Origin: Ascidia mentula
Taxonomy: Eukaryota > Chordata > Ascidiacea > Phlebobranchia > Ascidiidae
Assembly (NCBI GenBank): GCA_947561715.1
Contig: OX387199.1
Span: 17,861,001-17,925,000, forward strand
Direction of reading: 5' to 3'
DNA length: 64,000 bases
Shown: piece by piece, positions 442 through 23,772 of the stretch
Numbering within the stretch: position 1 is the stretch's first letter
Layout: each line of letters starts with the position of its first letter
Translations under genes and position numbers: made by a program
Notes under the pieces: generated by a model
Told to the model about the DNA's origin: nothing
Seen by the model: only the letters and a program-made list of their open reading frames with translations
The model's database searches: none

Positions 442-911
442 TTAATTTCCAACATTCCTTTTCTCACGATTCTGCATGTAGTATTTAAATCCAGGTAATC
501 CTGCTGGTGGAAGTTTTCCTGAATTCCTCTTTTGGCGATTTTCAATATCACTGGTGAATTTACCTGGATTTTGTGTATTACTGATAAATTTACCTATCAT
601 TTTCTAAATTCCTGGTGAATTGATGTAGTTTTTATTACTGATGAATTTAACTACATTTTGTAAATTAATGGTGACCTGGTGGAGGCAATCCGTTTTCCAA
701 TTCCCTTCTTCGACGATTTTCAAAATTTCTTTTGAATCCAGATAAGGAAGGAAAGATTTGATTTTTGGCATTCCTTCTCTGGAGATTTTGTGAAAGCTTG
801 ACATCCAAGTGGAGACCTGCGATTTTCTGCATTCCTCTTTTCAACATTGGAACATAACCACAATCCACACAACAACAACACGACTGGAGCTTTGTTGACT
901 TTGCTCCCCAT
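442..911 (-). pseudogene. Furin-site precursor paralog A, frame-broken
   Basis: The minus strand starts at 911 with MGSKVNKAPVVLLLCGLWL, a leader very like that of gene B (MGSKVNIALVMLLFCGMWL), then a VEKRNAENRR stretch. After that, the family pattern lies in other frames: LQRRNAKN, FENRRRRELENGLPPPG, and further down IENRQKRNSGKLPPAGLPGF and MQNREKRNVGN before a stop at 442-444. The units have the family layout: an N-R-x-K-R basic site, a short linker, then a Pro-Gly-Phe segment. Between about 560 and 680 the unit degenerates into short repeats. The parts are no longer one open frame, so I call it a decayed host gene. Introns could rescue some of the breaks, but I saw no convincing splice sites. 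The function of the family is unknown; secretion and proteolytic processing are inferred. Confidence 0.6.
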
Positions 912-1090
912 TTTCGGACAAATTACAATGTAAGTCTGGCAGCAATGCTCGTTTATCCTAACACCGCAAACTGAACAGGTTTGGGCCTAAACCTTCATAA
1001 ATGAACTAATTTTAGTCGTTGTTGTCTTTTAGCGCCACCTAGTGATCTAATAATTTTTTGGGAGAATTAAACAAAATAATACTGCATGTT
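912..1090 (-). promoter_or_regulatory. Upstream region shared by paralogs A and E
   Basis: Read on the minus strand, this stretch shares an ordered series of blocks with 19,030-19,222 on the plus strand: CTAGGTGGCGCTAAA, ACAACAACGAC, a shared AAATTAGTT, CTGTTCAGTTTGCGG, and ACATTGTAATTTG just ahead of the leader sequence. Conservation of order and spacing suggests copied promoter DNA. A TATA-like run (ATAATAAAA) is visible in the E copy and a weaker one (GGATAAAC) here. Promoter function is inferred. Confidence 0.45.
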
Positions 1091-1384
1091 GAAAACATCT
1101 TGTTGCAACGTAAGTTCAATTTTCCTGATTCCTGGTTAGCACAGGGTCTTGAGTTCAAACATTAACGGGAGATTGATTTTGAAATCTCGCACCGATTTGT
1201 CATTAAAAAGTGGCTGATCCAGGTACACTGCAATGTCTGGGCTTCGAATCCTGTAAACCTAATGATCTCGATACGATAGCTGTGATCAACAAGTAAGGGA
1301 CCTGCGCAGTGGGGCGATGCTGCCAATCTTGCCATTGCATGAAACCTTACTGCCATTCGATAGGCGCACATATAGGTTAAAATC

Positions 1385-1462
1385 AATTGTTACTGATGCT
1401 GCCAGGCATATTTATTGCTTAATACTGCTCTTCTGGCAAACTTTATTGTATTTACGTTTCTC
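1385..1462 (-). repeat. Penelope terminal direct repeat, 3' copy
   Basis: It matches 4039-4116 in the same orientation and matches the inverted copy's end near 5153-5230. It behaves like the pseudo-LTR typical of this family. The ribozyme-like core at 1453-1496 overlaps its edge. Confidence 0.8.
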
Positions 1463-1496
1463 GACGTTTCGGCTATTATGCAACAGCCTTCATCAG
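1453..1496 (-). ncRNA. Hammerhead-ribozyme-like motif of the element
   Basis: On the minus strand: CTGATGA, one extra A, a GGCT/AGCC stem, GAAA, an ACGT/ACGT stem, then A at the expected cleavage position. These are the conserved hammerhead boxes in the right order, and Penelope-like elements are known to carry such motifs. No convincing stem I was found, so activity is uncertain. Confidence 0.5.
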
Positions 1497-4038
1497 GAGG
1501 AAGTATCTAAGTCTACCACAGTGGACGATTTGAGGCACATAAACAGAAACGCTAAAAAGAAAGAAGAAGTGAAACAACGAAAAAGCGATAAGGGCGAACA
1601 CATCTGCACAGTATACTTATCACTAACCGCACGGTTTTATCACGGTTTTTGAAGTGCGTAATGTCTATCGGCATAATTTTTCTCTAGCAAGTGTCGATAC
1701 ACCGGTGGAAACAGAGTTTGTTTCTTGTCATTGAGTGATGACGCATGCGTATTGATGTTTAACGACTCTAAAAACATCCTCTTGTGCCTATCGGACTCGC
1801 GTTCCAAAATGATCGTTTTTGTAAAGTCCACCGCATGTCCTGATTCGGCCGCATGTTGCGAAAGAGCCGTTTTTTCCTCATGGTTTCTCACGTCCCTTTG
1901 GTGCTCTTTTAATCTTGTTCTTAGCGCACGGCCAGTTTCACCAATGTATACGCCGCTGCAACCACCGCAGGGAATACTGTAGACCACACCCCTCGTGTCG
2001 AGCTTGTCGTGCATGCGGTCTTTTGGGTGCGATATTAAGGAACGTAGGGTGACGACCGGACGTTCAAAAACCTGAATATTAAAGTCGCCAAGCAGGCGTT
2101 TAAAGTTTCCGAAAGTTCAGAAACATATGGTAGTACAACTACACCCGCAGGTTTCCCCTCATCACTTCTCCGAGTCAAACTTCGATTATGCCGGAGAAAA
2201 GAACGACGATAACCGTTAGCAAGAAGGGCTTTATTAACATAACCCACCTCTTGCTTTCGTTCAGCGTCATCAGTTATCAATGATTCGGCACGATTATGTA
2301 ACGAGCGTACTACCGCCCTCTTGTGTGCGATCGGGTGCGCCGAGCGAAACGACAGGTACCTGTTGGAATGGGTGGGCTTGCGGTACACCCTGGTGGAGAG
2401 AGTCCCCTGATCTTCTTTCCGAACCAGAACGTCTAAAAATGACAACTCACCCCCTCGCTCGCGCTCCATTGTGAACCCGATGCTCGGTTCAATGGAGTTA
2501 AGATGCGTGAGCAGTGATTGGACGTCATCCCGTCGTACGACCACGAATGTGTCGTCCACATAACGTCTCCAAAAACTAGGAGGGTTAACAAACGTTGCCA
2601 ACGCCCTGTTCTCAACCGATTCCATGGCAATGTTTGCGACCACAACGGAAAGTGGGGATCCCATAGCAGTACCAAAAATTTGTTTATAAAATTTACCTCT
2701 AAAGGCAAGATAGGTTGCATCCAGGCACAACTCAAGACAATGCATAACGTCCGACAACGGCCACGAGCAACGTTGTTCCAATGTCTCGTCCATGCGTAGT
2801 CTCTCCGCTGCTTCGTCCAGCGCTAGCTTTATCGGTACGTTGGTAAACAAGGAAACCACATCAAAAGACACCATTTCCTCTTCTTCATGCACACACAGCT
2901 CTTTTATCTGCGTAACAAAACTGGCAGAATTCTTAACGGTTTTATCCGTCTTCCCCACAAGGGGCACCAAAAACTGTGCCACGTGTCTAGCCAGATTATA
3001 TGTTGGCGATCTGATAAACGAAACTATCGGCCGTAAAGGGACACCTGGCTTGTGAATTTTGGGCAATCCATTATAGCCTGGGGGTCCGACCATCAGTACT
3101 GTGCAATTCGAAAAATTCTCGCATTGACAACACCTGTCTGTCCCTGTATAGGCGCCCAACTTTCTCATTGATCCTCCGCTCTACAGCATGACATGGGTCC
3201 CGTTTTACTTCGCGGTAAGTTTCTTTGTCTCTCAACATAACATTGAGTTTGTCGTCGTAAACTTCTCTATCTAAGACAACGGTAACGTTCCCTTTGTCAG
3301 CGGGGACAATCACAATGTTTTCATCTTCACGTAACTGCTTCACAGCGACGCATTCTTCGCGTGACAAGTTGTGCTGCACACGGCGATGGCTTCTAATGCA
3401 GTTCACGACCTTGCTCTGTATCAATGACCTTATGTGGGCTGGCTGGTGAGCGATACCTTTCTCCACTGAAGCAACCACCTGTTTCCAAGGCACGTGGGAT
3501 TCCGCGATCGCATAGTTCAAACCGAGGGATAGTACGTGTGATTGCCCAGGCGTGAGCGTGCGACTAGAGAGATTTAAAACCCATTTCGCGTTATCTGTCG
3601 TAGGCCTTTGTTGTGTGGATTCCTTCTTGCATAACATCATTAACCGCAGTAAACCTTTCTCCTTGGCCCTTTCATACGCCTTCGTACCGCCAATCTCGGC
3701 ATAAGCGTTTATGTTTGCCCACACATCGTCTCGCAGGGTCTTTTGCATATTCTTTCGTAACCACGACATCTCTTTCGCGTTCTGTTCAATTGCTAAGTGG
3801 GATGATCTTATTCGAAGGTTTATAAATTTAAAACCAGCTCTGCGCATTATGTTTCTGCCCTCCCAAGATTTCAACGGAGGTCGAAAGCGTAGGTTATGTG
3901 GTAAGACCTTTTCCCTCAAGCAAGCATGATTAAAATGCAGATGCGCTCGATGTTGTGCACTGACCACGGCTAGACGTACATATCTTCGTAACTGGCCCAG
4001 TATATCAGACCCATACGTGTCTTTAACTTCTTTAAATA

Positions 4039-4116
4039 AATTGTTACTGATGCTGCCAGGCATATTTATTGCTTAATACTGCTCTTCTGGCAAACTTTAT
4101 TGTATTTACGTTTCTC
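4039..4116 (-). repeat. Penelope terminal direct repeat, 5' copy
   Basis: A 78-base copy of 1385-1462. It stops abruptly at about 4114-4116, where the inverted truncated copy begins. The two sequences share a two-base TC at the join. The presumed start codon of the element lies within this repeat. Confidence 0.8.
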
Positions 4117-5230
4117 TTAACTCCATTGAACCGAGCATCGGGTTCACAATGGAGCGCGAGCGAGGGGGTGAGTTGTCATTTTTAGACGTTCTGGTTCGGA
4201 AAGAAGATCAGGGGACTCTCTCTACAAGGGTGTACCGCAAGCCCACCCATTCCAACAGGTACCTGTCGTTTCGTTCGGCGCACCCGATCGCACACAAGAG
4301 GGCGGTAGTACGCTCGTTACATAATCGTGCCGAATCATTGATAACTGATGACGCTGAGCGAAAGCAAGAGGTGGGTTATGTTAATAAAGCCCTTCTTGCT
4401 AACGGTTATCCTCGTTCTTTTCTCCGGCATAATCGAAGTTTGACGCGGAGAAGTGATGAGGGGAAACCTGCGGGTGTAGTTGTACTACCATATGTTTCTG
4501 AACTTTCGGAAACTTTAAAACGCCTGCTTGGCGACTTTAATATTCAGGTTTTTGAACGTCCGGTCGTCACCCTACGTTCCTTAATATCGCACCCAAAAGA
4601 CCGCATGCACGACAAGCTCGACACGAGGGGTGTGGTCTACAGTATTCCCTGCGGTGGTTGCAGCGGCGTATACATTGGTGAAACTGGCCGTGCGCTAAGA
4701 ACAAGATTAAAAGAGCACCAAAGGGACGTGAGAAACCATGAGGAGAAAACGGCTCTTTCGCAACATGCGGCCGAATCAGGACATGCGGTGGACTTTACAA
4801 AAACGATCATTTTGGAACGCGAGTCCGATAGGCACAAGAGGATGTTTTTAGAGTCGTTAAACATCAATACGCATGCGTCATCACTCAATGACAAGAAACA
4901 AACTCTGTTTCCACCGGTGTATCGACACTTGCTAGAGAAAAATTATGCCGATAGACATTACGCACTTCAAAAACCGTGATAAAACCGTGCGGTTAGTGAT
5001 AAGTATACTGTGCAGGTGTGTTCGCCCTTATCGCTTTTTCGTTGTTTCACTTCTTCTTTCTTTTTAGCGTTTCTGTTTATGTGCCTCAAATCGTCCACTG
5101 TGGTAGACTTAGATACTTCCTCCTGATGAAGGCTGTTGCATAATAGCCGAAACGTCGAGAAACGTAAATACAATAAAGTTTGCCAGAAGAGCAGTATTAA
5201 GCAATAAATATGCCTGGCAGCATCAGTAAC
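4115..5230 (+). mobile_element. Penelope-like element, inverted 5'-truncated copy
   Basis: The plus strand encodes the last part of the reverse transcriptase (from FTMERERGGELSFLDVL onward) and the whole GIY-YIG region, in one uninterrupted frame from 4149 to 4979. It then runs through the same 3' untranslated region to CAGCATCAGTAAC at 5230. It lacks the N-terminal region and most of the polymerase motifs. It lies head-to-head with the minus-strand copy, an arrangement common in Penelope elements. Protein identity to the other copy is nearly complete, so both probably arrived together and recently. No clear target-site duplication was found. Confidence 0.88.
5123..5166 (+). ncRNA. Hammerhead-ribozyme-like motif, inverted copy
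   Basis: Same boxes as in the minus copy: CTGATGA at 5123-5129, the GGCT/AGCC stem, GAAA at 5149-5152, an ACGT/ACGT stem ending at 5165, and A at 5166 as the possible cleavage base. Stem I is not evident. Confidence 0.5.
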
Positions 5231-7630
5231 ATTTATTATGTAAGGTTATCAATCCGTTGTTTTTTGGTGTCGGGATGGTTTTCAAGAATACGTTCTTTCG
5301 CCTAGTTGTCATACCATCGGCGAGCGTTCAAAACAAAAAGCGGATGCAGATATGGCACAACTGCAACTGCAAAAGCACAATGCGCCCAAAACTACTTGAA
5401 TAGCTTTCAGACGGACTTGTCTACAAGCAACCAAACGGAACCCCGAGGAAGAATCGTTTTACTTCATTTTTATTCCCTGTCATTTAATCTAATTAGTAAT
5501 TATGTACTTATAATGACAAAATCGCGTGTTTATTTTAATGAACCGTTACTGTATCCATAAGATTTGTTTTCTGTTCACTGAGTAACTGTAGCGTTACGAA
5601 TCTCGGCCAGGTTTTCTTTTTTGTATATGGGTCGGGCGCTTGACCTATTTCAGCTGTAAATCACCGATGCACGAAAGTCCCCCACCTAGATTCAGCAGTT
5701 ACCTAAAAAAAAGCCCACATGGTAGCGCCATTGGACTGAAAACACACTGGTCAACTCACGTACAAAACATGTATCCCTCTATAAAAACCATTGTGCCCAT
5801 ACAACTACTTCATGATCAGCATTGCATCCAAAATTATGAAACAATCCTTAGCATTTTAAGCTTTGGAATTATACAAACCGATTAAGATAAACTGCTTCAG
5901 AATAATTGCTTGGTAATGCTGGGCTAAAGCTTGGTACACAACGGGAGTCAAACACAAATAGTTGATAGAAATGTAATCTCTAAAGTAGACAGAATCTAGC
6001 CCCTGATGCGGCACGATCACTTTGAGTTAATTGTCTTTAGATATAATCATTAAAGTGATGAAATATTATAAACTCATGTCAAAGTCATATTCAACGAAAA
6101 AGATCCAGCAATCAGTCAAAACAGGGATAGCAGCAGGTCAAGGTTGTGTCTGGAGAAAAGCGAATGCAAAAGTAGAATTTAACGCACCAGTAGCCCGCGG
6201 CAGAATAAGGTGCAGTCAAGTGCAATCCAATTTTTTGCAGCGAATGTGTGTTAGATCATGAAATTTATAAACGTTAAATTTTTTCTTCTGAAGTGTAATA
6301 AAAGATTTTTAATTTAAATAAATCATTGCATTGAGTAATATTCATCCCACCTCCTAAAAAATTTATGCCTTATCTAACATATGTACAGAGCTGCTTATCG
6401 ATGTGAAACAGAAAATATGGGTGATTGATTAAGGAATTTGATTTACCTCCATTGACGCTACATTGCACATTTGAGACAAAACATATTAAAAAACAGCCTT
6501 CAAAAAAATGATATAGCAAAATCAAAATATTGACTATATTGCAAATACGTTAGACAACTCATCAGTATTTCAATGAAATTTATTTTTGTGGGAGGGTTTA
6601 CGTTTTTTCTCTTCTTGTTCCCATTCAGCTCGCGTTCAGTTCACGGTCGATTGACCAATATGAGCGGGCAAACCTTAAAATGTGGTGTCAAGCTCATGCT
6701 AGGTGAACGCCTAGTCAGCAACCACAAAATATCTTCGCCAACACAAAGTACTTTGTGACGGACCAATCGGCGTCAGTACAAATGATCTAAGATAGATTCT
6801 AACTTTTATTTCCACCCAAGAAAAGCATTGAATCTAAGCGTTTGTTTATCCACAAAAAGTTCTCCCAACCTTTGTCATGTCTGTGATGTCGTTGCATTTA
6901 TGTATTTATACAAACAGATCTCGCACCACAACAAATTATGTAATTTGTATTATTCATGTACACCAAAGTTAAGAGAAAAATGTATCGTTTCCTTTAGTCA
7001 CACATCAATAACATGATCACGACTGAAAAAGTCTTCTAACAACGACTGTGATATTTTCTTTTTTGGCGATAAGCTTTTTAATTTCGCAGGAATTTTACCC
7101 AAAGTTCTTTATTGTGAATGACAGTGACAAAAAAAACAAGAAACGTAATAATTTACTGTGTCGGTACAGGACTGTGTTTGTGTTGATAAAGCTTGACAAG
7201 TTTGACGTCAAGACGGCACTGATTATGTCGATTTGGGATGAATGGATAAATCTATTTAAAATTTTAGATACTTCAACTTAAAACATAGCATAGGACATAC
7301 ATAAACATGCAGAATATCTTTTTAGGCAACAAAGTAACTAGCTTTTGGGATACTAGTCATGTAGGTGTAACCTCTATTTGTGCGCATCAAAACGCCTTGT
7401 CGCTTGTTTACGTCACTGCCTTTTACCTTATTTTATGTTTAAGACTAGAACCTTGTGTGCATTTCTCTCCACAGATAAGATACCGAGGGGTTGTCGCGCC
7501 GCTCGCAGTTTTTTGTGTTGGTTTTAGATGTAGAATTTTATCGTTTTTTATCGTCCATATTTAGTCAGGCAGTCGGATAATTTTGTTCAATATTCAACGT
7601 TTAGCTTGTTTTATTTTACTAAACACTTCG
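5231..7630 (+). repeat. Duplicated upstream block, copy 1
   Basis: This block precedes gene B. It is collinear with 10,990-12,720, with patchy similarity: TATGTAAGGTTATCAATC at the start, the GGCGAGCGTT and GACGGACTTGTCTACAAGC segments, then ATATGTACAGAGC, ACAGATCTC, AATTTGTATTAT, GTTCTTTATTGTGAATGACA and the GGTTGTCGCGCC segment just before the leader exon. Copy 1 is longer because of unmatched DNA around 5.6-6.3 kb. It is probably a segmental copy of a gene's upstream region. I saw no gene inside it; small open frames here look incidental. Confidence 0.6.
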
Positions 7631-7727
7631 TTCTCTTAGGACGAAAACTGACGATATCAGGCACAATTATTGGTTCTTACTGACGTTCTTCGCCCACAAA
7701 TTTTTGTGTTTACTCAAAGTACACAAA

Positions 7728-8168
7728 ATGGGAAGCAAAGTCAACATAGCGTTGGTCATGTTACTGTTTTGTGGAATGTGGTTAATTTCCAATGGCGAAA
7801 ACTGTAATGCAGAAACCAGCCAAAAGTTTGAAAAAAAACATCCTCCAATGGGATTTATCAGTAATGCCAAAAATCGTCGAAAGCGGAATTTAAAAAACGC
7901 CGATTCTCCCATGGCTGAATTTAAAGGTTATATGGAAAACCGCCAAAAATGGGATGAGGAAAATGTCGCATCTCTTTTTGGTGGATTCAACAGTAATTTT
8001 GCATATCGACGAAGAAAGAATTTAAATAAAAGAATTCTACCAGCAGAAGACAGATTAAAAAGTGGTATTAAGAATCGCCAAAAAAGGAATCCGGAAAATC
8101 GTCAACCTCGACCTCGACGTCGACCTCCAGCTGCTGGATTTAATGATTTAAAACAGATTTTGCAGTGA
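7728..8168 (+). CDS. Secreted precursor with furin-type sites, paralog B
   Basis: 146 residues. A leader (MGSKVNIALVMLLFCGMWL, about residues 1-24) is followed by four imperfect units of about 22-25 residues. Each begins with a basic site: NRRKRN, ENRQKW, YRRRKN, KNRQKRN. Each then runs into an acidic/polar linker and a Phe-containing end (MAEFKGYM, FGGFNSN). The tail is Arg/Pro-rich (RQPRPRRRPP). RRKR and RQKR fit the furin rule R-x-K/R-R, so secretory processing into short peptides is inferred. The second and third sites are eroded. The ATG at 7728 is chosen because the leader starts there and matches paralog A. A polyadenylation signal lies at 8393-8398. No known family is recognised; it could equally be a structural secreted protein. 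Confidence 0.65.
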   Translation: MGSKVNIALVMLLFCGMWLISNGENCNAETSQKFEKKHPPMGFISNAKNRRKRNLKNADSPMAEFKGYMENRQKWDEENVASLFGGFNSNFAYRRRKNLNKRILPAEDRLKSGIKNRQKRNPENRQPRPRRRPPAAGFNDLKQILQ

Positions 8169-8392
8169 AGAAATTGTGGAAAAGAAAGCATTTCCCCGAT
8201 TACGAAGTTAATTGAAAACTGGGTTTGGAACATTCTTTTCCGGTTTTCGAATGTATATATTTTAGACTTAAAATGGAAGCATAGGTCAACTAGTTTTAGT
8301 TAAATATTGGATTATGTAAACACACCTGTGCATAAAAGCTGCCATGGATATCGGCACCTTGTTGTGTTAAATACACAACTAACTCATGTGAC

Positions 8393-8398
8393 AATAAA
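8393..8398 (+). terminator. Polyadenylation signal of paralog B
   Basis: AATAAA about 225 bases after the stop codon of the plus-strand precursor gene ending at 8168. Confidence 0.45.
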
Positions 8399-8399
8399 A

Positions 8400-10100
8400 A
8401 AAATATGTAATATGCTTTTATGTCGAAAGGAGAATGTTGACAAATATTAACAATTAAATGACGTGCATATCGTGTTCATCGCAACATGGGTATAAATTAA
8501 TTGTAAAAAAGGTATTGCAAATCACGTAGATATTTGTTTGTTCACATTTTCTGGAGCAAAGAACCGAAGTTTAATATTTCTTTATAATTTGCTAGTACAA
8601 AGGGTTTGTCTGCATATAAGATCGTCACAACGGTGTGTCAGTGGTTTTTAGCGAATTATTTTGTGGTTGCCGACCCTGTATATATATTTGACCAATAATG
8701 TAATTATCAATGAATGACCAGAAAACATTTCGCAATAAAATTATGATGTTATAATAGTTTCAGCTTGCTTTGCGTTGCAACGAGCATTGCGGTAATGTAC
8801 GTAATGTATTCAACCCCAAATGCAATACGTCACCCAAATTTAATATTCACAGGGGCCGATTTATTCGGTATCAACTAAGCGAAGCTTGGTATTCATTCCA
8901 GATCCACAAAAAAATTTCCGTTATTTGTTGAAAGTTGTTTTACGCCATCGCGATCAAAGTCAATTTAATTGATGAGTTTCAACAATAAATGCTGAAGTGC
9001 ACTCAAAATCTAATTCGTTGCTTACCAGGTGTTGACCCAGCAGTGCTTCGCACAAACTTTTGGGGTTTGTCAGCTGGCTTTTAAACTTGTGCATTCAACC
9101 GTAACCAAGTCTGCAACCCCCTTTTTTGATAGCAACCAAGCGAAGCGTTCCATCCCCTGAAGATTCACGAAGATCTTCCGTCGATATTATTGAAACAAAG
9201 TTTATCTTTCATGCGACAGCATTTTAATTATATTTAAGGCAACAAATTGCACCATTATCTGTCTTGTGTCTTGAACTAAGACAAACTTATGCTTTGTGAC
9301 GAAGGTCGGCGACAAACATTTTCTTAATCATTGTTATATTCACAAGCACAAAAGCGTACTGACGAATTCCAAAAATTGGTGCCGAAGCACTGTTGGTTAA
9401 AAAATCAGTTGTGTATGTACAAAGAAAACAAAGTCTCCTTGTTTTTCGCAAATTGAGAGACGTGTTGTATTTGTGTTTAAAACATGACGTAGGTCCATTA
9501 TAGTGCCTCGGCCCCATATTTTTTTGTGTGTTTTTGCATTTGACCGTGACGCTGGTAAAGCAGTGGGTGGGAATAATATTAATGTCATGGTCAAATGCGA
9601 AACAGACGTGCGTTGACACACAATTAAATGCCGTATATAAAGTACTGCAAAGTCAAGTTCAAGTCAGCAACTAAGCAAGCTCATTTGAAAGCAACCAAGC
9701 AAAACGTTTGATACTCTGTGGCTCCAGAAGGAAATGCTGCTGTAATTTTTGAAACAAAGTTTTTCTCGTATGTAAAATCTTTTTAGCCAACGTCTTTTTG
9801 ATGACATGTAAAGTAACGAAAAACGAAAGAATTTTGACAAACAATGTTTAGGATTTGACCGCGCAGTAGTTTTAGGTAGGCTTTTTGTGTTTGTCTGCTT
9901 GTGTATTAGTTGTTCATTCATGCTTATATACATCGATATCATAAAGTGTTGCGACATCAATTTGGCGAAAAATACGATAAGGTCCAATACCTTACTTGGT
10001 TAAAAATGAAAGTCAGAAGCTATCTTACGACCACGTATACAAGGGTTGTTACATCGCCACCAAGTAGTTTTTAGCGGCGTTGAAATGATGTTGTGTTTGC
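8400..10100. repeat. Spacer with three diverged short repeat copies
   Basis: Three related stretches begin at about 8870, 9125 and 9685, marked by (A/G)CAACCAAGCGAAGC-like starts; the last two also share TTGAAACAAAGTTT. Other open frames here look incidental. No gene is supported. Confidence 0.35.
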
Positions 10101-10139
10101 AGACTTGGCGTTGACCCAGCACAACACGACACGACTTGT

Positions 10140-10870
10140 GCTTGTTTTAACTCAATGCGTTGTTTTTTTTGTGTGTCAGTTTTGTTCATAAGAACACGTT
10201 TTCTCTCCAAGTTGTCATACCACCAGCGAGCGTTTAAAGTAATTAACGGATGAACAACTGCAAATATAAGATGACAGACAGAGAACGTTGAGTTTTCTGC
10301 CAATGCAATTCTTCACGGTTAAGTCCGCAACCACAAAAACACAGTTCTAGTTCTCGCAACCCTTTGGGGTGTCGATATAATAAAATACTTATATAAACAA
10401 CCCAAGCAGATCTCCGCGCACCACAACATATTCAAGTAATTTGTATTATCCATGTATACAATAGTAAAAGAAAAATTAGTGTCGTTTTTTGCATCAGTGC
10501 ATAATCGCAAATGTAAAAGTCTTCAAATAACGATTGTGATTTTTTTTCTTTGTTTTTTTGGAAGATTTTTTTCGCTGGAAGTTTTTCATGCAAGTTTTAC
10601 ACAAAGTTCTTTATTGTGAAAGACAGTGACAAAAAAACACATTTACTGTTTGGCGGTAAAGGACGGTAACAACTGTACTTGATTCGTTTATAAAGCGTGA
10701 CAACTTTGTATTTAAGACTGTACAGATTGTGGTGATTTACGATGCATGTACATCCCTATTTAAAATATCCATTACTTTTGGGATACTAGTCATGTATGTG
10801 TAACCTCTATTTGTGCTCATCAAAACGCCCTATAGCATTTACACCACTGCCTTTTACCTTATATTATGTT
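10140..10870 (+). repeat. Partial copy of the duplicated upstream block
   Basis: It shares CATACCACCAGCGAGCG, TTCTCGCAACCCTTTG, GGTGTCGATATAAT and GATCTCCGCGCACCACAAC with the later copy (10,990-12,720), and related text with 6.84-7.45 kb. It has no leader exon at its end. It seems to be a third, shortened copy. Confidence 0.5.
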
Positions 10871-10989
10871 TAAGACGAGAACCTTTAGGTAATGGTGATG
10901 AAATGGTATTTTCGACGCAAAGGATTTGCCATACATATTGCTTTTTGCAAAATATGTGGTTATGCTGTAAACATACTTAAACATATGAA

Positions 10990-12720
10990 AATTATGTAAG
11001 GTTATCAATCTGTTGTTTTTTGGTGTCGGGATGGTTTTCAAGAATACGTTCTCTCGCCTAGTTGTCATACCACCGGCGAGCGTTTAAAATAAAAAGCGGA
11101 TGCAGATATGGCACAACTGCAAATATGAGATAATAAAAACGAAAATGTCGGGTTTTCTACCAAGTCAATTCTTCATGGTCAAAAACACAATGCGCCGAAA
11201 ACTACTTGAATAGCTTTCAGACGGACTTGTCTACAAGCAACCAAACGGAACCCCGAGGAAGAATCGTTTTACTTCATTTTTATTCCCTGTCATTTAATCT
11301 AATTAGAAATTATGGGTTTTTAATACCTTAATGCGTTGTTTATATCAATGACAAAATGCATGTTAATTTTAATGAACAGGTACTGTATCCAAAATATTTC
11401 TTTATTGTTCACTAGGTCGCATCAGCACCACCTAAATTTAATGATTAAACACCGAATCGTCAAAAAAAGATCGTTGGAAAATAAAAAATCCAGATGATAA
11501 TTGTGTCGAGAATAGCGTACTGGAATATAATAATTTTTTCTTGAAAAAATGATATCATTTATTTACTCTACTTCTCCAAATACTATCACGGAAAACAGTC
11601 GCTAATTTTACGGAACAAAACTAAATTTGAATATATACCCACAAACATCAAATTAATTCATCCAAAGTTTCTTAAAACATTTAAAATTGTTTGTATAAAT
11701 CATTGCAGTGAATAATAACCCAATGTAACTCATAACAAAATTGCACGGTACGTAAAATATGTACAGAGCAGCTCACCGATGCGAAACATCAAGTAAGGGT
11801 GATCAGCTCGCATTCCGGTCACGGTCGAGTGGCAACGTGAGCTGACAAACCCAAAAATGCGCCCTGCTAGGTTAATGACAAGTGAGCAACCGCAAAATCA
11901 CTAAGCCACCACAAGGTATGGGGCTGAAGACATATCGGCGCCAGTATATGGGGTCCTAAGACAGCTTCTGACTTTCATGTCTGCCAAAAGAAAGCATTGA
12001 ATGTTAACGTTTTTTTTCTAGAATTAGTTCTCGCAACCCTTTGAGGTGTCGATATAATTATGTACTTATATAAACAACACAAACAGATCTCCGCGCACCA
12101 CAACATATTCAAGTAATTTGTATTATCCGTGTGTACTAAAGTTTAAGAAAAATGAGTGTCGTTTCCTACATCAGTGCAAAATCGCAAAAGTAAAAGTCTT
12201 TTTTCTTTGTTTTTTTTGTGAGATTTTTTTTTTTTTTAAGTTTTACACAAAGTTCTATATTGTGAATGACAGTGACAAAAACACATTTGCTGTGTGGCGG
12301 TAAAGGATGGTAACAACCGAAATTAATTCGTTTATAAAGCTCAACAAACTTCACGGCAAGACATTTACGATGCATGTACGTCCCTATTTGAAATTTCCGT
12401 TACTTCAACTTAAAGCATAGAACATATATTGACATGCAACACATCTTTTTCAGCAACAAAGTAACTAGCTTCAAGTAACTAGCTTTGGGATACGCATCAA
12501 CACGCCTTATCGCAAGTTTACGTCACTGCCTTTTACCTTAATTTGTAGTGAAGACTGCAACCTGTGTGCATTTCTCTCCTCAGACGAGATACCGAGTGGT
12601 TGTCGCGCCTCTCGCAGTTTTTAGTGTTGGTTTCTGTTGAAGAATTTTATCGTTTTTTATCGTCGATATTTGGTCTGGCAGTCGGATAATTGTGTTCAAT
12701 ATTCAACCTTTACCAATATT
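10990..12720 (+). repeat. Duplicated upstream block, copy 2
   Basis: Collinear with 5231-7630 and ending in the decayed leader of relic C. The stretch 10,995-11,300 is the best conserved part relative to 5237-5490. The GTTGTCGCGCC...CTCGCAGTTTT...GAATTTTATCG segment at about 12,600 matches about 7490. Confidence 0.6.
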
Positions 12721-12865
12721 TCTGAGTATCCTCAAAGTAGACAAAAAGGAAAGCAAAGCCAAAAGCGCAAGTCATGTTGCAGTTGTAAGGCCTCCAATGG
12801 CGAAAACAGTAATGCAGAAAATAGCCAAAATCGTCAGAAGATGATCTTAAAAAATATTTGATAAT
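12719..12865 (+). pseudogene. Relic of a furin-site precursor, paralog C
   Basis: It aligns with gene B from CTCAAAGTA(G/C)ACAAAA through GGAAAGCAAAG and GTCATGTT to CCAATGGCGAAAAC, then AGCCAAAATCGTCAGAAG. The equivalent of B's start codon is gone (AAAAAGGAAAGC instead of AAAATGGGAAGC), and only a trace of one basic unit (QNRQKM) remains before a stop. It is a dead copy of B that was duplicated with its upstream block. Confidence 0.6.
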
Positions 12866-13433
12866 ACAAAGGTAATGGATACGGAAAAAACAGAAAATTG
12901 TTTCGAATTCCTTGTTTAGGCGAAATTTTAACAATATTTTCATACATTTTTTTATAAATATGTTGGCAATCCGTTGGCGCTACCTAGGTGGAGAGTTGGC
13001 GTGTAGTGGCGGTTCGCAGCTGCAATAAGTAGGGGTGTTTATGGCGGGCAATTGGCAACATCGGTCAAGCGCTCGACCCTTTGGTATCCTTGCACTTATA
13101 CACACTATTCTTTACCAGTGGACACGCAAGAGCATTAACGAACAGCATCAACAACAAGGATACCCAAAAAAACACAGCTAAAAAACTATGCAAGCACTAT
13201 TCAATACAGAAAAAAAAAGAAAAAAGTCTAAAATGGCTCACACGGTGGCGCTAAGGGACTACCAGCACGTAAGTGAAATGGCTTTTAAAACTCGTCTTGG
13301 TACCCGAACTATGTAGTCTAAAATGTAGAGGATATGATCAAACTGGGAAAGCACTTGATCAAAAAACAAAAACTATAATCAATCGGAATAAATGTGCAGT
13401 TATCTTACAGAGAAAACTAGAACTGATTCAAAT

Positions 13434-15653
13434 ATGAAAAGTACAACTTACATTATGTACGTCGTGCTACTGTTGTTGGGACTGTGGAAATGCTGCAACT
13501 CGGAAGAGATAAACATCGAAAACCGTCAAAAAAGGAGTTTGGGACATCAATCAGATCTACAAGACCTACCAGGTGGTCGATTCAACGGCAACATCGAAAA
13601 CCGTCAAAAAAGGAGTTTGGAACATCAATCAGATCTACAAGACCTACCCTATGATCGATTCAACGGCAACGTCGAAAACCGTCAAAAAAGGAGTTTGGAA
13701 TTTCATTCAGATCTACAAGACCTACCCGGTGGTCGATTCAACGGCAACGTCGAAAACCGTCAAAAAAGGAGTTTGGAACATCATTCAGATCTACAAGACC
13801 TACCCGGTGGTCGATTCAACGGCGACGTCGAAAACCGTCAAAAAAGGAGTTTGGAACATCATTCAGATCTACAAGACCTACCCGGTGGTCGATTCAACGG
13901 CAACGTCGAAAACCGTCAAAAAAGGAGTTTGGAACATCATTCAGATCTACAAGACCTACCCGGTGGTCGATTCAACGGCAACGTCGAAAACCGTCAAAAA
14001 AGGAGTTTGGAACATCATTCAGATCTACAAGACCTACCCGGTGGTCGATTCAACGGCAACGTCGAAAACCGTCAAAAAAGGAGTTTGGAGTTTCATTCAG
14101 ATCTACAAGACCTACCCGGTGGTCGATTCAACGGCGACGTCGAAAACCGTCAAAAAAGGAGTTTGGAACATCATTCAGATCTACAAGACCTACCCGGTGG
14201 TCGATTCAACGGCAACGTCGAAAACCGTCAAAAAAGGAGTTTGGAACATCATTCAGATCTACAAGACCTACCCGGTGGTCGATTCAACGGCAACGTCGAA
14301 AACCGTCAAAAAAGGAGTTTGGAACATCATTCAGATCTACAAGACCTACCCGGTGGTCGATTCAACGGCAACGTCGAAAACCGTCAAAAAAGGAGTTTGG
14401 GACATCAATCAGATCTACAAGACCTACCCGGTGGTCGATTCAACGGCGACGTCGAAAACCGTCAAAAAAGGAGTTTGGGACATCAATCAGATCTACAAGA
14501 CCTACCCGGTGGTCGATTCAACAGCGACGTCGAAAACCGTCAAAAAAGGAGTTTGGGACATCAATCAGATCTACAAGACCTACCCGGTGGTCGATTCAAC
14601 AGCGACGTCGAAAACCGTCAAAAAAGGAGTTTGGAATTTCATTCAGATCTACAAGACCTACCCGGTGGTCGATTCAACAGCGACGTCGAAAACCGTCAAA
14701 AAAGGAGTTTGGGACATCAATCAGATCTACAAGACCTACCCGGTGGTCGATTCAACAGCGACGTCGAAAACCGTCAAAAAAGGAGTTTGGGACATCAATC
14801 AGATCTACAAGACCTACCCGGTGGTCGATTCAACAGCGACGTCGAAAACCGTCAAAAAAGGAGTTTGGAATTTCATTCAGATCTACAAGACCTACCCGGT
14901 GGTCGATTCAACGGCAACGTCGAAAACCGTCAAAAAAGGAGTTTGGGACATCAATCAGATCTACAAGACCTACCCGGTGGTCGATTCAACAGCGACGTCG
15001 AAAACCGTCAAAAAAGGAGTTTGGGACATCAATCAGATCTACAAGACCTACCCGGTGGTCGATTCAACAGCGACGTCGAAAACCGTCAAAAAAGGAGTTT
15101 GGGACATCAATCAGATCTACAAGACCTACCCGGTGGTCGATTCAACAGCGACGTCGAAAACCGTCAAAAAAGGAGTTTGGAATTTCATTCAGATCTACAA
15201 GACCTACCCGGTGGTCGATTCAACAGCGACGTCGAAAACCGTCAAAAAAGGAGTTTGGGACATCAATCAGATCTACAAGACCTACCCGGTGGTCGATTCA
15301 ACAGCGACGTCGAAAACCGTCAAAAAAGGAGTTTGGAATTTCATTCAGATCTACAAGACCTACCCGGTGGTCGATTCAACAGCGACGTCGAAAACCGTCA
15401 AAAAAGGAGTTTGGGACATCAATCAGATCTACAAGACCTACCCGGTGGTCGATTCAACAGCGACGTCGAAAACCGTCAAAAAAGGAGTTTGGGACATCAA
15501 TCAGATCTACAAGACCTACCCGGTGGTCGATTCAACAGCGACGTCGAAAACCGTCAAAAAAGGAGTTTGGAATTTCATTCAGATCTACAAGACCTACCCG
15601 GTGGTCGATTCAACGGCAACGTCGAAAACCGTCAAAAAAGGAGTTTGGAATAA
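13434..15653 (+). CDS. Secreted polypeptide precursor with 27 tandem units, paralog D
   Basis: 739 residues. The leader is MKSTTYIMYVVLLLLGLWK, a signal-peptide-like stretch. Then come 27 complete 26-residue units and a partial 28th. Each unit begins ENRQKRS, contains SDLQDLPGGRFN and ends NGNV, NGDV or NSDV. RQKR followed by S is a textbook furin site, so the product would be cut into many nearly identical peptides. By the residues after the site, heads are LGHQ (12), LEHH (7), LEFH (7) and LEHQ (1). The ATG at 13,434 is preferred over 13,392 because the leader starts there. A possible splice acceptor (TTATCTTACAG) ends at 13,410. The frame ends at TAA 15,651-15,653, inside a unit, while family-like sequence continues in the same frame. 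The function is unknown; neuropeptide, antimicrobial or matrix roles are all possible. Confidence 0.7.
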   Translation: MKSTTYIMYVVLLLLGLWKCCNSEEINIENRQKRSLGHQSDLQDLPGGRFNGNIENRQKRSLEHQSDLQDLPYDRFNGNVENRQKRSLEFHSDLQDLPGGRFNGNVENRQKRSLEHHSDLQDLPGGRFNGDVENRQKRSLEHHSDLQDLPGGRFNGNVENRQKRSLEHHSDLQDLPGGRFNGNVENRQKRSLEHHSDLQDLPGGRFNGNVENRQKRSLEFHSDLQDLPGGRFNGDVENRQKRSLEHHSDLQDLPGGRFNGNVENRQKRSLEHHSDLQDLPGGRFNGNVENRQKRSLEHHSDLQDLPGGRFNGNVENRQKRSLGHQSDLQDLPGGRFNGDVENRQKRSLGHQSDLQDLPGGRFNSDVENRQKRSLGHQSDLQDLPGGRFNSDVENRQKRSLEFHSDLQDLPGGRFNSDVENRQKRSLGHQSDLQDLPGGRFNSDVENRQKRSLGHQSDLQDLPGGRFNSDVENRQKRSLEFHSDLQDLPGGRFNGNVENRQKRSLGHQSDLQDLPGGRFNSDVENRQKRSLGHQSDLQDLPGGRFNSDVENRQKRSLGHQSDLQDLPGGRFNSDVENRQKRSLEFHSDLQDLPGGRFNSDVENRQKRSLGHQSDLQDLPGGRFNSDVENRQKRSLEFHSDLQDLPGGRFNSDVENRQKRSLGHQSDLQDLPGGRFNSDVENRQKRSLGHQSDLQDLPGGRFNSDVENRQKRSLEFHSDLQDLPGGRFNGNVENRQKRSLE
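13518..15650 (+). repeat. 78-bp coding minisatellite
   Basis: 27 units of exactly 78 bp (13,518-15,623) plus a 27-base partial unit. The period is a multiple of three. Units differ at only a few bases, for example GGCAAC, GGCGAC or AGCGAC near the end, and GAACATCATT, GAATTTCATT or GGACATCAAT after the basic site. Early units are mostly LEHH/NGNV, and units from the twelfth on are LGHQ or LEFH with NSDV. This shows local amplification by unequal exchange. Confidence 0.95.
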
Positions 15654-15755
15654 CATTCAGGACCACGAAACCCACCCGGGGGTCGATTTAACAGCAAGGT
15701 CGAAAACCGCCGAAAGAGAAACTTGAAAAACGCCGTAGCTTCTCCTGCGGCCTAA
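15654..15755 (+). pseudogene. Cut-off C-terminal end of paralog D
   Basis: Directly after the stop of gene D, the same frame stays open for 33 residues. It reads HSGPRNPPGGRFNSKV, then ENRRKRNLKN, then AVASPAA and a stop at 15,753-15,755. It is a diverged final unit plus a normal-looking tail, very like NRRKRNLKN in paralog B. The TAA at 15,651 replaces a codon that reads CAT or TTT in other units, so the stop looks secondary. Confidence 0.6.
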
Positions 15756-15759
15756 GTCT

Positions 15760-18700
15760 TAACAACAACGATATAGATTTTCAAATACATGAACTTATGT
15801 GTGCTAATATAAAAACAGTTAATCCACTGACATAGGAGAGAGTTTATAATTTACTATTATTGCTCTTTAATGTGATTTTTAATACTCGCTAAAATTACAA
15901 ATAAGTATACTTGCCTCGTAAAGATAATCCTAATATTTGCCACATGTTACATATTCTCGACAACATTAAAATAAGTGCACGCACGCCTAAGATTTTTTGG
16001 ATAAACTACATTGAAAGTGTGATCAGGTTGTTACGAACAAGTCACAGTTAAAGATACAGTATATTTACAGGAATGAGCCAATATGTTTCCAGGCATTTTA
16101 AACTGAAAAATTCATTTTTTGCAGCGTATGAGCACCATCGTCGCAATCTGATCATTGTTTTTTGTTTCAAAATATAATTTCAAAAACCCCCGGGCAAAAA
16201 AAGGTTCTTAATGTGTATATTTCGGAAGGCATTTTAAGCCCGAAAACAGTGGCTATGTCGTATTTAACATTTCATTGAAGGTATTTTGAACAGTTTTAAG
16301 CATGGACAATGTGTCATCAGACTTGTCTGTAGTCCATTAGTTATTTAAATAAACTGTCGCGTTAAAACCGATAACACATTTACACCAACCAAATTTAAGC
16401 AACCTCAAAAGTGACCGATTGTTCAAATATACCAGAATTTGTCGCACAAAGGTTGCAGTATTTCACATAAACTTTAAAATGTTTAACGGATCGCATTAAC
16501 GTGCACAAAATCAAAGTTACCAGACATTCATGTACAGGATTGGTCGCTTCAGGGCACTAGCAGAACGAGCTTTAAACCGCAGGATGAAACCGCAGAATGC
16601 TAGACCGCAGCTTGTGTACATCGCTCTCTCAAAAAACTGCTTGTCGATATCGCATTTGTGGAAGACGTATTTCACGTTTGCAAACCTTGCCAATTTTGCT
16701 CAGTACAAAAGCCCATTGGTTTAACTCGTTGGGATTTTTGAACACATGCACTTCAAACCTATTTGTATTGGTGTACTCTACCTTCACGAACTATATAGTT
16801 ACTCACAAGTTATGATTATCGCGTTAAGGTTTTTCGCTGTGATGATATTTGCTCTACAGTGACCTCACGTGGCATTAACGTTGTCCCTCTTGCGACTGTA
16901 AGCACGAGAAATTTATTGTTATGTCCCTTGTACAACCTGTAAAAGCAAAAGCGATTTATTAACTGCTATTATCGTTATACATTTTACCTGTGTATTATAA
17001 CTTTTATGTGTTGTGTATTTTATCAAAATAACATGAGGCTTAAACGTAACTGCAAGGATGTTCGAGTTTTGTTTAAGATACGTACAGATCAAGAACCAAC
17101 ATTGATGTTTAAGTCTGAGTGTTCACAGCACAGACATCTAAATATATGCGATTGGACATCACAACGATCCCCGACGGTTTTGAGAGTTCGAGCAACGCAT
17201 ACTAGAAGACGTTCCACATTCACATTTCCACGTTCACCACCGGTTTCACACATGCGGGAGTCAATCATTCAAGTACGATATCATACGAATGCAGCAGAGC
17301 TGATCAGGAAATCACGTCAAAATACATGGACAACTCATCCAAGAGCCGGAATGCAGTTTGAGAAAAGGGGGAGTTATACGTATCGTCAAACGTTATATTT
17401 GCAAATTATTGTGTTGTGTTTTACAGTATTACGGCGGTCTGGTATCACGTAATTGCTTTGTCCTGTCACCAACCAACATTCAATATTTTCATTCAGAAAT
17501 TGACCTTTTCTAACGCCACTTGTTGTGCGTGACACAGGTGGAAACTTCACGTTTGCATAATTACAATAAAAACATGTATTCTTTACAATAAATGCGTTTG
17601 ACACAAGGTTATTTTATATTGTAATTTTGTCACCAACCAGTTTTAATTGACTTCAGGCGATAATTTCATTGCCACAAACTCAGGGCACCTCACTTAACGA
17701 TGAACGAACCAATAGCCGACTTCAATTAAAGAAATAGTTCGCTCATTAACTATCAATATCACAGCATCTTATGCCCACATAAGAAAGAGGTTTTTCGTAA
17801 TGGCCGCAGAATGACTCGAATCTAGTTTTCTCAGGCGAATACCGAAGTTTGTTGTTATGCGTGGCCGTATGTAACGTGACAGACATTCGTACGGATGGGC
17901 GCCTGACTTAATAACCTTCATGGTTTTATTGGTGCCCATTCCATTTTATTTCTTTCGTATATGTTCATCTCCGTTTTTGTTTTTTGCGCAAAATACACTT
18001 GATTTTATTTTGATTTGGTATGAAGTTTTTTTAGTAATCCTCGCGCGATTGTTAATTATGTACTAAACGGATTGATGGATTTTAGGTTTGATAGTAGCCT
18101 TTTTATCAGGAATCAGAAATACGGCAGTTTTATAATTCTGTAGACGTTTTAATATATGGTTTCTACATCTTCACCATTGATCGATTAACTTGAATATCAT
18201 TCCGGTTTATAATAACAACCTAATAAATTCCGTGACTTTCCTTTAGCGGGACTTATTTATATCTTTTAAAACAAGTATTATCACATTTTTTGCTACTTTA
18301 CTGAAAAGTAGTAAACAAAAATGTTATATTTTGGTGTTTGCCCTTTTCGCTTAGAATGCAGTTACATCTGCAAATGATTTTTCTGAGTAAAAAAACATAA
18401 CTTTATTATCTGGGAAAATTATTCGCTTAAATACACGACGCTGTGCGTAGCGTATCTCACTCCTTCACGAAACGTAAATTGTAAATGCTCCACTCGTAAA
18501 GATTTTAGCGTGAATTCATTACCAGTAAAGCATTTCCAATTACATTTCGAGCATGTTGCAGCGAGTTTTGCCATTTAGGTTTTCGACAATTATCTAACAT
18601 CGCAATGTTCTCAGTTTTTCCGGAGAAACCTCTAGTATTTCGATTCAAAAGTTTTTTAATGGTCGCTATAGTGAAATGCAACAGATTTTGCATTGTGCAA

Positions 18701-19030
18701 CATTATGTAATTTTTAAAATTGATGATTTAAATTATATTACATTTTGCACACTGTTACAATTAAGTAATTTTGAGAATGTATGTTTTACAGCTTTCTTCC
18801 TCAAGTTGTAACTGTAATTGGAATGTTTACTACTAATACATAACCAACCCAATGTATATTTGTGTTGAATTATGTCAGAGTTTGTCAACAGATAAAATTT
18901 TCAAATCCGGAGAAACACACGAACATTTCATTTTTTTCAGAAAAATTAATATGATTAACCACACTTGTGCTAATGGAATGGAGAACAAATCAGAAAATAC
19001 TATTTTTGAATGTAAGACCAGTTGGAACGA
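15760..19030. other. Intergenic, no supported gene
   Basis: The longest open frame, 17,006-17,452 (148 codons, plus), shows no leader, domain or family resemblance and I do not call it. One copy of a small dispersed repeat lies at 17,895-17,939 and is described separately. Otherwise the stretch is low-complexity A+T-rich DNA. Confidence 0.4.
17895..17939 (-). repeat. Small dispersed hairpin repeat, copy 1
   Basis: On the minus strand, ATGGGC and GCCCAT arms enclose an AACC/GGTT stem. Copies lie at 27,688-27,725 and 60,915-60,961 with the same layout, followed in plus orientation by CCATTTTATTT or CTATTTTATTT. The layout recalls a worn hammerhead: a stem I, a CTGATGA-like box, then a stem II. 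Confidence 0.4.
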
Positions 19031-19074
19031 GAGGTTGTTGACATTCAGTATAATTTTGTTCAATTCTTAAAAAA

Positions 19075-19290
19075 ATGTTACAGATTACTAGGTGGCGCTA
19101 AAGGACAACAACGACCGAAATTAGTTGATTTATAAAGATCGTTTCGAGCCAAAAACTGTTCAGTTTGCGGAGTTATAATAAAAGGACATTACTGGTAGAC
19201 ATATATTGTAATTTGACGAAACAAGGGAAGCAAAGTCAAGCAACATGTTAGTCGTGTTGTTGTTGTGTGGTTTGTGATCATGTTTCAATG
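19075..19290 (+). pseudogene. Promoter and leader relic of a precursor gene, paralog E
   Basis: It shares with paralog A the CTAGGTGGCGCTAAA, CTGTTCAGTTTGCGG and ATTGTAATTTG blocks, then GGGAAGCAAAGTCAA and the leader-like GTCGTGTTGTTGTTGTGTGG. The position of A's start codon reads ACAAGG instead of AAATGG. The leader frame stops at once (GGTTTGTGA), and no basic repeat units follow. It is a dead or truncated member of the family. Confidence 0.6.
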
Positions 19291-23770: not shown

Positions 23771-23772
23771 AG

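What the first reader, a model, noticed from the sequence alone, without database searches (positions are those of the whole stretch)
442..19290. Cluster of paralogous secreted precursors with furin-type repeat units
Five loci (A 442-911 minus, B 7728-8168, C 12,719-12,865, D 13,434-15,653, E 19,075-19,290) share a leader (GSKVN...LLLCG.W) and/or units built on NR(Q/R/E)KRN or NRQKRS. Some are intact, some dead, on both strands. The basic site is conserved although the linkers have diverged, which suggests that cleavage matters. I recognise no known family. This is the best candidate here for an undescribed gene system, possibly peptide signalling, defence or a secreted matrix.
Basis: partly seen in the sequence, partly recalled or inferred. 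Interest (0 to 1): 0.75.

Follow-up and report, generated by a model that had tools for sequence, protein, structure and literature searches.

The report
Sea-squirt family of many-copy peptide precursors
A sea squirt carries dozens of related gene copies, many of them coding for a secreted protein that looks built to be chopped into several to many near-identical short peptides (one gene encodes 226 repeat units), in a family with no relative found in the databases searched and no known job.

Summary
The genome is the ascidian Ascidia mentula (window = chr3:17,861,001-17,925,000). B and D are intact frames: a signal-peptide-like leader, then units ending in (E)NRQKR. A, C and E are broken relatives. 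I count 55 loci with a leader or leader remnant: 14 around the window, at least 37 at chr3 16.17-16.55 Mb, three at 15.57 Mb and one on chr4; a 56th (21.06 Mb) lacks the leader. Some are broken. The chr4 gene reads 5,014 aa with 226 consecutive 22-aa units. Between genes, cluster-1 leaders and RxKR sites look constrained (pN/pS 0.29 and 0.10); within arrays the peptides vary about as neutral sequence does. One upstream element occurs only at family loci (7 of 7), another mostly there (36 of 47). No credible known family was found. Most likely this is a proprotein-convertase-cut multi-peptide precursor, in the style of insect Baramicin or fungal KEPs, releasing linear, mostly acidic, Pro/Asn-rich peptides in bulk. 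Host defence is my first guess; pheromone or self-assembling coat are rivals. Transcription, cleavage and function were not testable here.

The parts
442..911 (-). Locus A: broken family member (leader plus units, split over several frames)
   Evidence: leader profile 56.9 bits; unit profile 25.0 bits at 517-558 and 15.4 bits at 689-739; 75-77% DNA identity to members at chr3 17.8427 and 17.7990 Mb
1026..1038 (-). Upstream box of A, GTGGCGCTAAAAG
   Evidence: alignment
7407..7427 (+). Upstream element of B, TTTACGTCACTGCCTTTTACC; 7 sites in the genome at up to 1 mismatch, 7 of 7 at family loci
7728..8168 (+). Locus B: intact frame, 146 aa: leader, degenerate units, Pro/Arg-rich C-terminal tail
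   Evidence: AATAAA at 8393-8398
10348..10885 (+). Orphan copy of the B-type upstream region (element with 1 mismatch at 10,838-10,858); no gene was seen behind it
12517..12537 (+). Upstream element of C, same as that of B
12718..12865 (+). Locus C: broken member (AGG where others have ATG, frame short)
   Evidence: DNA homology to B and others; leader profile alone is at chance level
13245..13257 (+). Upstream box of D, GTGGCGCTAAGGG
13434..15653 (+). Locus D: intact frame, 739 aa: leader, 28 RQKR sites, 27 complete 26-aa units
15654..15755 (+). Remnant beyond the stop of D: one more diverged unit and tail, same frame
   Evidence: unit profile hit 15,672-15,734, 36.8 bits; sequence
19021..19290 (+). 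Locus E: upstream region and leader remnant; box at 19,092-19,104
   Evidence: leader profile 21.3 bits; 79% to A over 272 bp; box

Best explanation
The loci are members of a duplicating ascidian gene family that codes for secreted multi-peptide precursors. Read from sequence: a leader of about 23 residues with a hydrophobic core, then from a few irregular units up to 226 head-to-tail units of 21-26 residues, each typically ending in (E)NRQKR followed by Ser, Asp or Asn. Inferred: the leader directs the chain into the secretory pathway; a furin-like convertase cuts after each RxKR; a carboxypeptidase trims the basic residues; the cell releases many copies of a linear peptide of about 19-24 residues, typically acidic and Pro/Asn-rich with a PP..GFN core. 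Array length sets the dose per transcript. Most likely use: bulk host-defence or surface-protection effectors, comparable to Baramicin's furin-cut IM10-like peptides, with gene and unit turnover keeping the peptide set changing.
For: Shared leader and units. Hydrophobic core (best 11-residue mean Kyte-Doolittle 2.8-3.1 in 6 of 6 leaders tried); 5 of 6 have Ser or Gly at -1 with Ser or Cys at -3 of a possible cleavage point. Leaders of 7 cluster-1/chr4 members with an intact start (D not among them): pN/pS 0.29, against 0.80 and 1.14 in the shifted frames. Between 13 genes the RxKR codons have pS 0.80 but pN 0.08 (inclusion asked for 3 of 6 site residues, which favours low pN but not high pS). 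Inside 8 arrays, 7 of 108 replacement variants fall in the RQKR columns, which are 32 of 177 columns (P 4.5e-4). Of 438 anchored sites 431 keep the dibasic pair and 431 have Ser, Asp or Asn after the cut (anchoring asked for 4 of 6 matches). The genome has 7 proprotein-convertase P-domain matches over the cut-off (exon pieces, so fewer genes). Shared upstream elements. Non-cationic furin-cut tandem peptides with a defence role have a precedent: IM10, IM12 and IM13, charges +1.1, +0.1, -0.9 (PMC8423362, passages read).
Against: No transcript or peptide was seen. Over the whole unit, replacement and silent variants inside arrays (108: 27) do not differ from the neutral expectation (33.8 silent expected, P 0.10), so the peptide body shows neither clear constraint nor proven diversifying selection. 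Leader constraint is weaker in the six 16-Mb-cluster leaders (pN/pS 0.60) and between the two clusters (0.58; one row of that second comparison was out of register). 75 of 227 sites of the chr4 gene read NCQKR and lack the P4 Arg. Predicted mature peptides are not cationic as a rule: 75 of 102 distinct ones are negative. Nothing ties any member to hemocytes, mucus or infection. Other frames of D and of the chr4 gene are open too. Several members are broken.
Confidence: 0.42

Rival explanations
1. The same precursors, but the peptides are signals or water-borne pheromones (spawning, settlement, gamete or larval cues); the conserved PP..GFN..EN part is the receptor-binding core and array number sets the output.
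For: 79 of 102 distinct peptides hold PP and 87 hold GF. Repeat number raises pheromone output in yeast, with diminishing returns (PMC5850478, abstract). Fungal KEPs include pheromones (PMC6339444, abstract and passages).
Against: No Gly next to the basic pair or before the site in 438 of 438 anchored sites, hence no amidation signal of the usual neuropeptide kind. At least 55 loci and a changing peptide body are unusual for one receptor's ligand (judgement). GFN and PPGF do not occur in the main text of the Ciona neuropeptide atlas (PMC12441681, term search and passages); this is weak, since its peptide table is a supplement that I could not see.
Confidence: 0.25
2. The precursors are cut and the peptides self-assemble into an extracellular coat (tunic, mucus, egg coat), as reported for Ustilago Rep1.
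For: Extreme copy number (226 units) suits a bulk material. [quoted passage not shown] the Rep1 paper itself not read).
Against: Predicted peptides are rich in Asn, Pro, Ser, Glu and Asp and have no Trp and little Tyr or Ile (composition), which does not suggest a fibril former (judgement).
Confidence: 0.15
3. The protein is not cut: the repeats form a secreted matrix protein and RQKR binds acidic polysaccharide.
For: Ascidian tunics are rich in acidic polysaccharide (recalled). The units can be highly regular: 226 of 226 in the chr4 gene are 22 aa long.
Against: The dibasic pair is kept in 227 of 227 chr4 sites while the Arg two places before it is Cys in 75, and the residue after the cut is Ser, Asp or Asn in 431 of 438 anchored sites. 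That fits a convertase better than equal basic contacts.
Confidence: 0.1
4. Most of the array sequence is expanding tandem DNA in decaying genes without current function.
For: Broken members A, C, E, m34071 and m1792 and a frame break in the 16.409-Mb member. Silent and replacement variants inside arrays are near neutral. Alternative frames are open. Leader pN/pS is 0.60 in the second cluster.
Against: pN/pS 0.29 in cluster-1/chr4 leaders and 0.10 at RxKR between genes. Upstream elements shared between clusters and chromosomes. 226 in-frame units without a stop in HiFi-based sequence.
Confidence: 0.08

Closest known systems
Drosophila Baramicin A (furin-cut multi-peptide immune precursor)
   Same: Tandem related peptides of similar size (IM10-like, 23 residues) separated by RXRR sites in a secreted precursor; peptides not clearly cationic (PMC8423362, passages)
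   Different: 3 IM10-like peptides against up to 226 units; no VxRPxRTV-type motif seen by eye in the 12 aligned members; IM24/IM22 homology not searched directly
Fungal KEX2-processed repeat proteins (KEPs)
   Same: Secreted proteins with repeated motifs bounded by convertase sites; motif size of 21-26 overlaps the 9-24 aa class named there (PMC6339444, abstract and passages)
   Different: Fungal. In that survey of 250 species the repeat number reached 129 once and 38 next; the chr4 gene here has 226. Sequence relation to KEPs not tested
Apidaecin-type multipeptide precursors and other Pro-rich AMPs
   Same: Many Pro-containing linear peptides per precursor; the C-terminal tail of B has a PRPRRRPP stretch
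   Different: Predicted units here are mostly acidic and their consensus shows no Pro-Arg-Pro repeat; apidaecin itself is from recall, the search listing and one sentence in PMC8423362
Multi-copy neuropeptide preprohormones (e.g. Antho-RFamide, 19-21 copies)
   Same: Many copies and basic processing sites (PMC9545775, passages)
   Different: No amidation Gly; at least 55 loci, mostly clustered; far higher copy number in the largest

Membership tests
Baramicin | Tandem peptides separated by RXRR/RXKR sites behind a signal peptide | tested here: met
   (architecture only; leader judged by hydropathy, cleavage itself not shown)
Baramicin | Sequence homology: IM24/IM22 domains, IM10-like VxRPxRTV motif | tested here: inconclusive
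   motif not seen by eye in the 12 aligned members; no Baramicin sequence was compared directly
KEX2-processed repeat proteins | Signal peptide, at least 3 near-identical repeats, convertase sites between them | tested here: met
   for the array members; short members such as B have few regular units
KEX2-processed repeat proteins | Fungal origin, cut by KEX2 | tested here: not met
   genome is Ascidia mentula
Cationic or Pro-rich antimicrobial peptide | Net positive mature peptide | tested here: not met
   of 102 distinct predicted peptides from 17 proteins, 75 negative, 10 neutral, 17 positive
Cationic or Pro-rich antimicrobial peptide | Antimicrobial activity | not testable with these tools
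   needs synthesis and assay
Amidated neuropeptide precursor | Gly before the basic site for C-terminal amidation | tested here: not met
   no Gly at the residue before RxKR, nor at the residue before the dibasic pair, in 438 of 438 anchored sites
Known Pfam, NCBIfam or PDB family | Credible profile match | tested here: not met
   Pfam: B and D and 12 members; NCBIfam: 5 proteins; PDB: B only. D's DUF4019 total (29.9 bits) is above its cut-off (26.5) but 0 stretches pass on their own; I judge it and the other low E-values in repeat proteins to be sums of weak matches over tandem units

The most novel reading that the evidence does not exclude
An undescribed chordate system in which dozens of clustered genes, with changing array lengths and unit sequences, give each animal its own blend of convertase-cut peptides, used as a chemical identity or self/non-self label at the body surface or at fertilisation; its largest precursor (226 units) would exceed the repeat numbers reported in the KEP and cnidarian papers of which I read passages.
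Probability: 0.07. Interest if true: 0.9.

Novelty: new variant of a known kind. Interest (0 to 1): 0.62.

Why it matters
If expressed and cut, this is a large family of multi-copy secreted peptide precursors in a close relative of vertebrates, with one gene encoding more peptide copies than the precursors named in the passages read here. It would make a concrete test of how repeat number, gene clusters and shared upstream elements tune bulk peptide output, and it supplies exact peptide sequences that can be synthesised and sought by mass spectrometry straight away.

Tried and rejected
Low E-values in Pfam (DUF4019 for D, whole-protein score above its cut-off but 0 single stretches; Tal_Pri and RbcS in two members each; MenC_N, COG2p_C, DUF1720 and others in one each) and in NCBIfam (fimbrial, curli and lyase models, 0 single stretches) were judged to be sums of weak matches over tandem units and set aside.

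Open-frame length as evidence of coding was rejected, because shifted frames of D and of the chr4 gene are open as well.

A claim of diversifying selection on the peptides was considered because pairwise pN/pS inside three arrays exceeds 4. It was dropped after counting distinct variants: 108 replacement against 27 silent, 33.8 silent expected, P 0.10. The GF ratio is not used, since [GR]F was required for inclusion. The first leader test of cluster 1 (0.44 for 11 leaders, 0.45 with D) contained an out-of-register row (m34071); it was repeated without m34071, A and D and with one of each near-identical pair (0.29).

My frame filter asked for Asn before the site and so printed 7 of the 11 stretches of the 16-Mb cluster; one search shows units in the other four too, mostly AEDRQKR. 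Those four were not in the counts.

A splice-acceptor-like stretch upstream of several B-type genes (TTTCTCTCCACAG) could mark spliced-leader trans-splicing; it is lost in m10898, and the matching CAG in the second cluster reads CCG in L051 and L057, so no claim is made. A likeness of PPGF to bradykinin was noticed from memory and not pursued.

Relatives outside this genome: none by tblastn among 89 pattern matches in viral contigs and 83 in prokaryote contigs. No other animal genome could be searched. Ten paper searches listed no paper whose title or abstract start describes this family; that covers only the held open-licence library.
Full report
Source. The window is G000:C52:17,861,001-17,925,000 of a 195.8-Mb genome in 79 contigs. 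The spliced leader ATTCTATTTGAATAAG (known from Ciona, recalled) occurs exactly 1,091 + 1,066 times against 0 for the reversed control. The window is therefore on chromosome 3 of that ascidian. The assembly is HiFi based.

The five loci. B (7728-8168) and D (13,434-15,653) are intact frames. D holds 28 RQKR sites and 27 complete 26-aa units in a 78-bp array. A, C and E are broken relatives: A and E by leader profile (56.9 and 21.3 bits against at most 10.9 in shuffled or reversed DNA) and by DNA; C by DNA only. A and B lie divergently, with a Penelope-like element between them; three other neighbouring pairs in cluster 1 are divergent too (coordinates). The stretch holding one such pair is duplicated (3,031 bp at 96.3% plus 755 bp at 94.4%); yet the two minus-strand copies have 12 and 69 RxKR sites, so array length can change fast.

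The family. Protein searches of the whole genome find members at chr3 17.797-17.880 Mb (14 loci with a leader or leader remnant: 13, E among them at only E 1.2, plus C), chr3 16.17-16.55 Mb (37 listed matches that start at leader residue 1 or 2; the list was cut and only 150 of 328 candidates were scored, so this is a lower bound; one of the 37 has a stop inside), three at 15.57 Mb, one on chr4 at 7,459,626, and one at 21.06 Mb without a leader match: 55 plus one. I read the DNA of only part of them: cluster 1 whole, 11 stretches of the 16-Mb cluster, and the chr4 gene whole. All 11 stretches carry frames with units: seven with NRQKR-type sites and four mostly with DRQKR, one of these with its frame broken. 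The chr4 gene codes for 5,014 aa: leader, 227 sites, 226 units of exactly 22 aa in 21 variants; 145 sites read NRQKR, 75 NCQKR, 7 NRPKR.

Constraint. Leaders of seven cluster-1/chr4 members with an intact start have pN/pS 0.29, against 0.80 and 1.14 in the shifted frames. Six leaders of the 16-Mb cluster give 0.60 on low divergence (pS 0.21), and the comparison between clusters 0.58 with one row out of register, so constraint is clear only in the first set. Between 13 genes (one segment each), RxKR codons differ at 80% of silent and 8% of replacement sites, the four residues before EN at 80% and 37%, EN itself at 21% and 15%. The inclusion rule favours low pN at the site, but not the high pS. 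Within eight arrays, 7 of 108 replacement variants fall in the RQKR columns (32 of 177 columns, P 4.5e-4), while the total of 108 replacement to 27 silent variants is near neutral. Of 438 anchored sites in 18 genes, 431 keep the dibasic pair, 359 keep a basic P4 residue (75 of the 79 losses are the chr4 NCQKR units) and 431 have Ser, Asp or Asn after the cut (anchoring required 4 of 6 matches).

Upstream elements. TTTACGYCACTGCCTTTTACC with up to one mismatch occurs 7 times in the genome, 7 of 7 at family loci (B, C, an orphan copy at window 10,838, two other cluster-1 genes, 15.574 Mb and the chr4 gene), 0 in the reversed control. RTGGCGCTAAAGG occurs 47 times against 4 in the reversed control; 35 lie in the 16-Mb cluster, one at locus E and 11 elsewhere. 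For 22 of those 35, a leader start listed lies 116-140 bp downstream of the box start; five lie 0.8-1.1 kb before one; the other eight are placed otherwise. Diverged forms precede A, D, m18322, m61659 and the 15.58-Mb gene. Separate clusters thus share upstream sequence, which suggests common regulation; no expression was measured.

Peptides. Cutting 17 predicted proteins at [RKHC]x[KR]R, leaving out the first and last pieces, gives 409 predicted peptides, 102 distinct, mean length 21.7 for the distinct ones; 75 of the 102 are negative, 10 neutral, 17 positive; 79 hold PP and 87 hold GF; Cys appears only in the NCQ forms of the chr4 gene. Seven convertase P-domain matches exist in the genome, so a processing enzyme is probably at hand.

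What it is. The anatomy is that of a convertase-cut multi-peptide precursor. This is seen in the sequence; secretion, cutting and release are inferred. Defence is the use I find most likely, because of clustered birth and death, bulk dose, changing peptide body, and the Baramicin precedent of furin-cut, non-cationic tandem peptides (PMC8423362, passages). The defence step is the weakest link. A recent Ciona-specific hemocyte peptide, CiEMa (PMC10888236, part 1 of 6 read), shows that ascidians do make lineage-specific secreted peptides, but its sequence is not related by eye.

Comparison. The KEP survey of 250 fungi reports repeat numbers up to 129, next 38 (PMC6339444, passages); sea anemone Antho-RFamide precursors carry 19-21 copies (PMC9545775, passages). 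The 226 units here exceed these; I do not claim a record beyond what I read. No credible relative was found in Pfam, NCBIfam, PDB (B only), viral contigs or prokaryote contigs. Other animal genomes and annotated ascidian proteomes could not be searched, so novelty is relative to these libraries and to ten paper searches.

Noticed in passing
window 1381-5237: Penelope-like retroelement (reverse transcriptase match just over its cut-off; the class name and GIY-YIG-like end are recalled) between A and B, with a 1.12-kb inverted copy of its end at 99.0% identity (1381-2503 against 5237-4115).
   Followed up: partly
window 37,383-59,142: Five head-to-tail copies of a 4.35-kb unit, about 99.4-99.5% identical, with no stop-to-stop frame longer than 138 aa listed inside; its function is not known.
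   Followed up: no
window 23,742-29,757: Exons that look like a large GTPase of the atlastin/GBP kind (judged by eye from [18 protein letters not shown]).
   Followed up: no
G000:C1 about 15.239-15.298 Mb: The spliced-leader sequence recurs every 719-720 bp in runs, on the minus strand in the hits listed there (the list was cut).
   Followed up: no
chr3 16.227-16.247 and 16.433-16.447 Mb: Members with the same E-values and identities about 205.4 kb apart: probably a recent segmental duplication within the second cluster.
   Followed up: no
chr3 16.18-16.51 Mb: Four members have the RTGGCGCTAAAGG box about 1.03-1.07 kb, and one 0.84 kb, before the leader start instead of about 0.14 kb, which hints at an intron or insertion in their 5' region.
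   Followed up: no
window 8094-8165 (tail of B): The C-terminal tail of B (ENRQPRPRRRPPAAGFNDLKQILQ) is Pro/Arg-rich, unlike the mostly acidic units; two relatives have PRPR.PP.GFN- or RPRPP.GFN-like tails.
   Followed up: no
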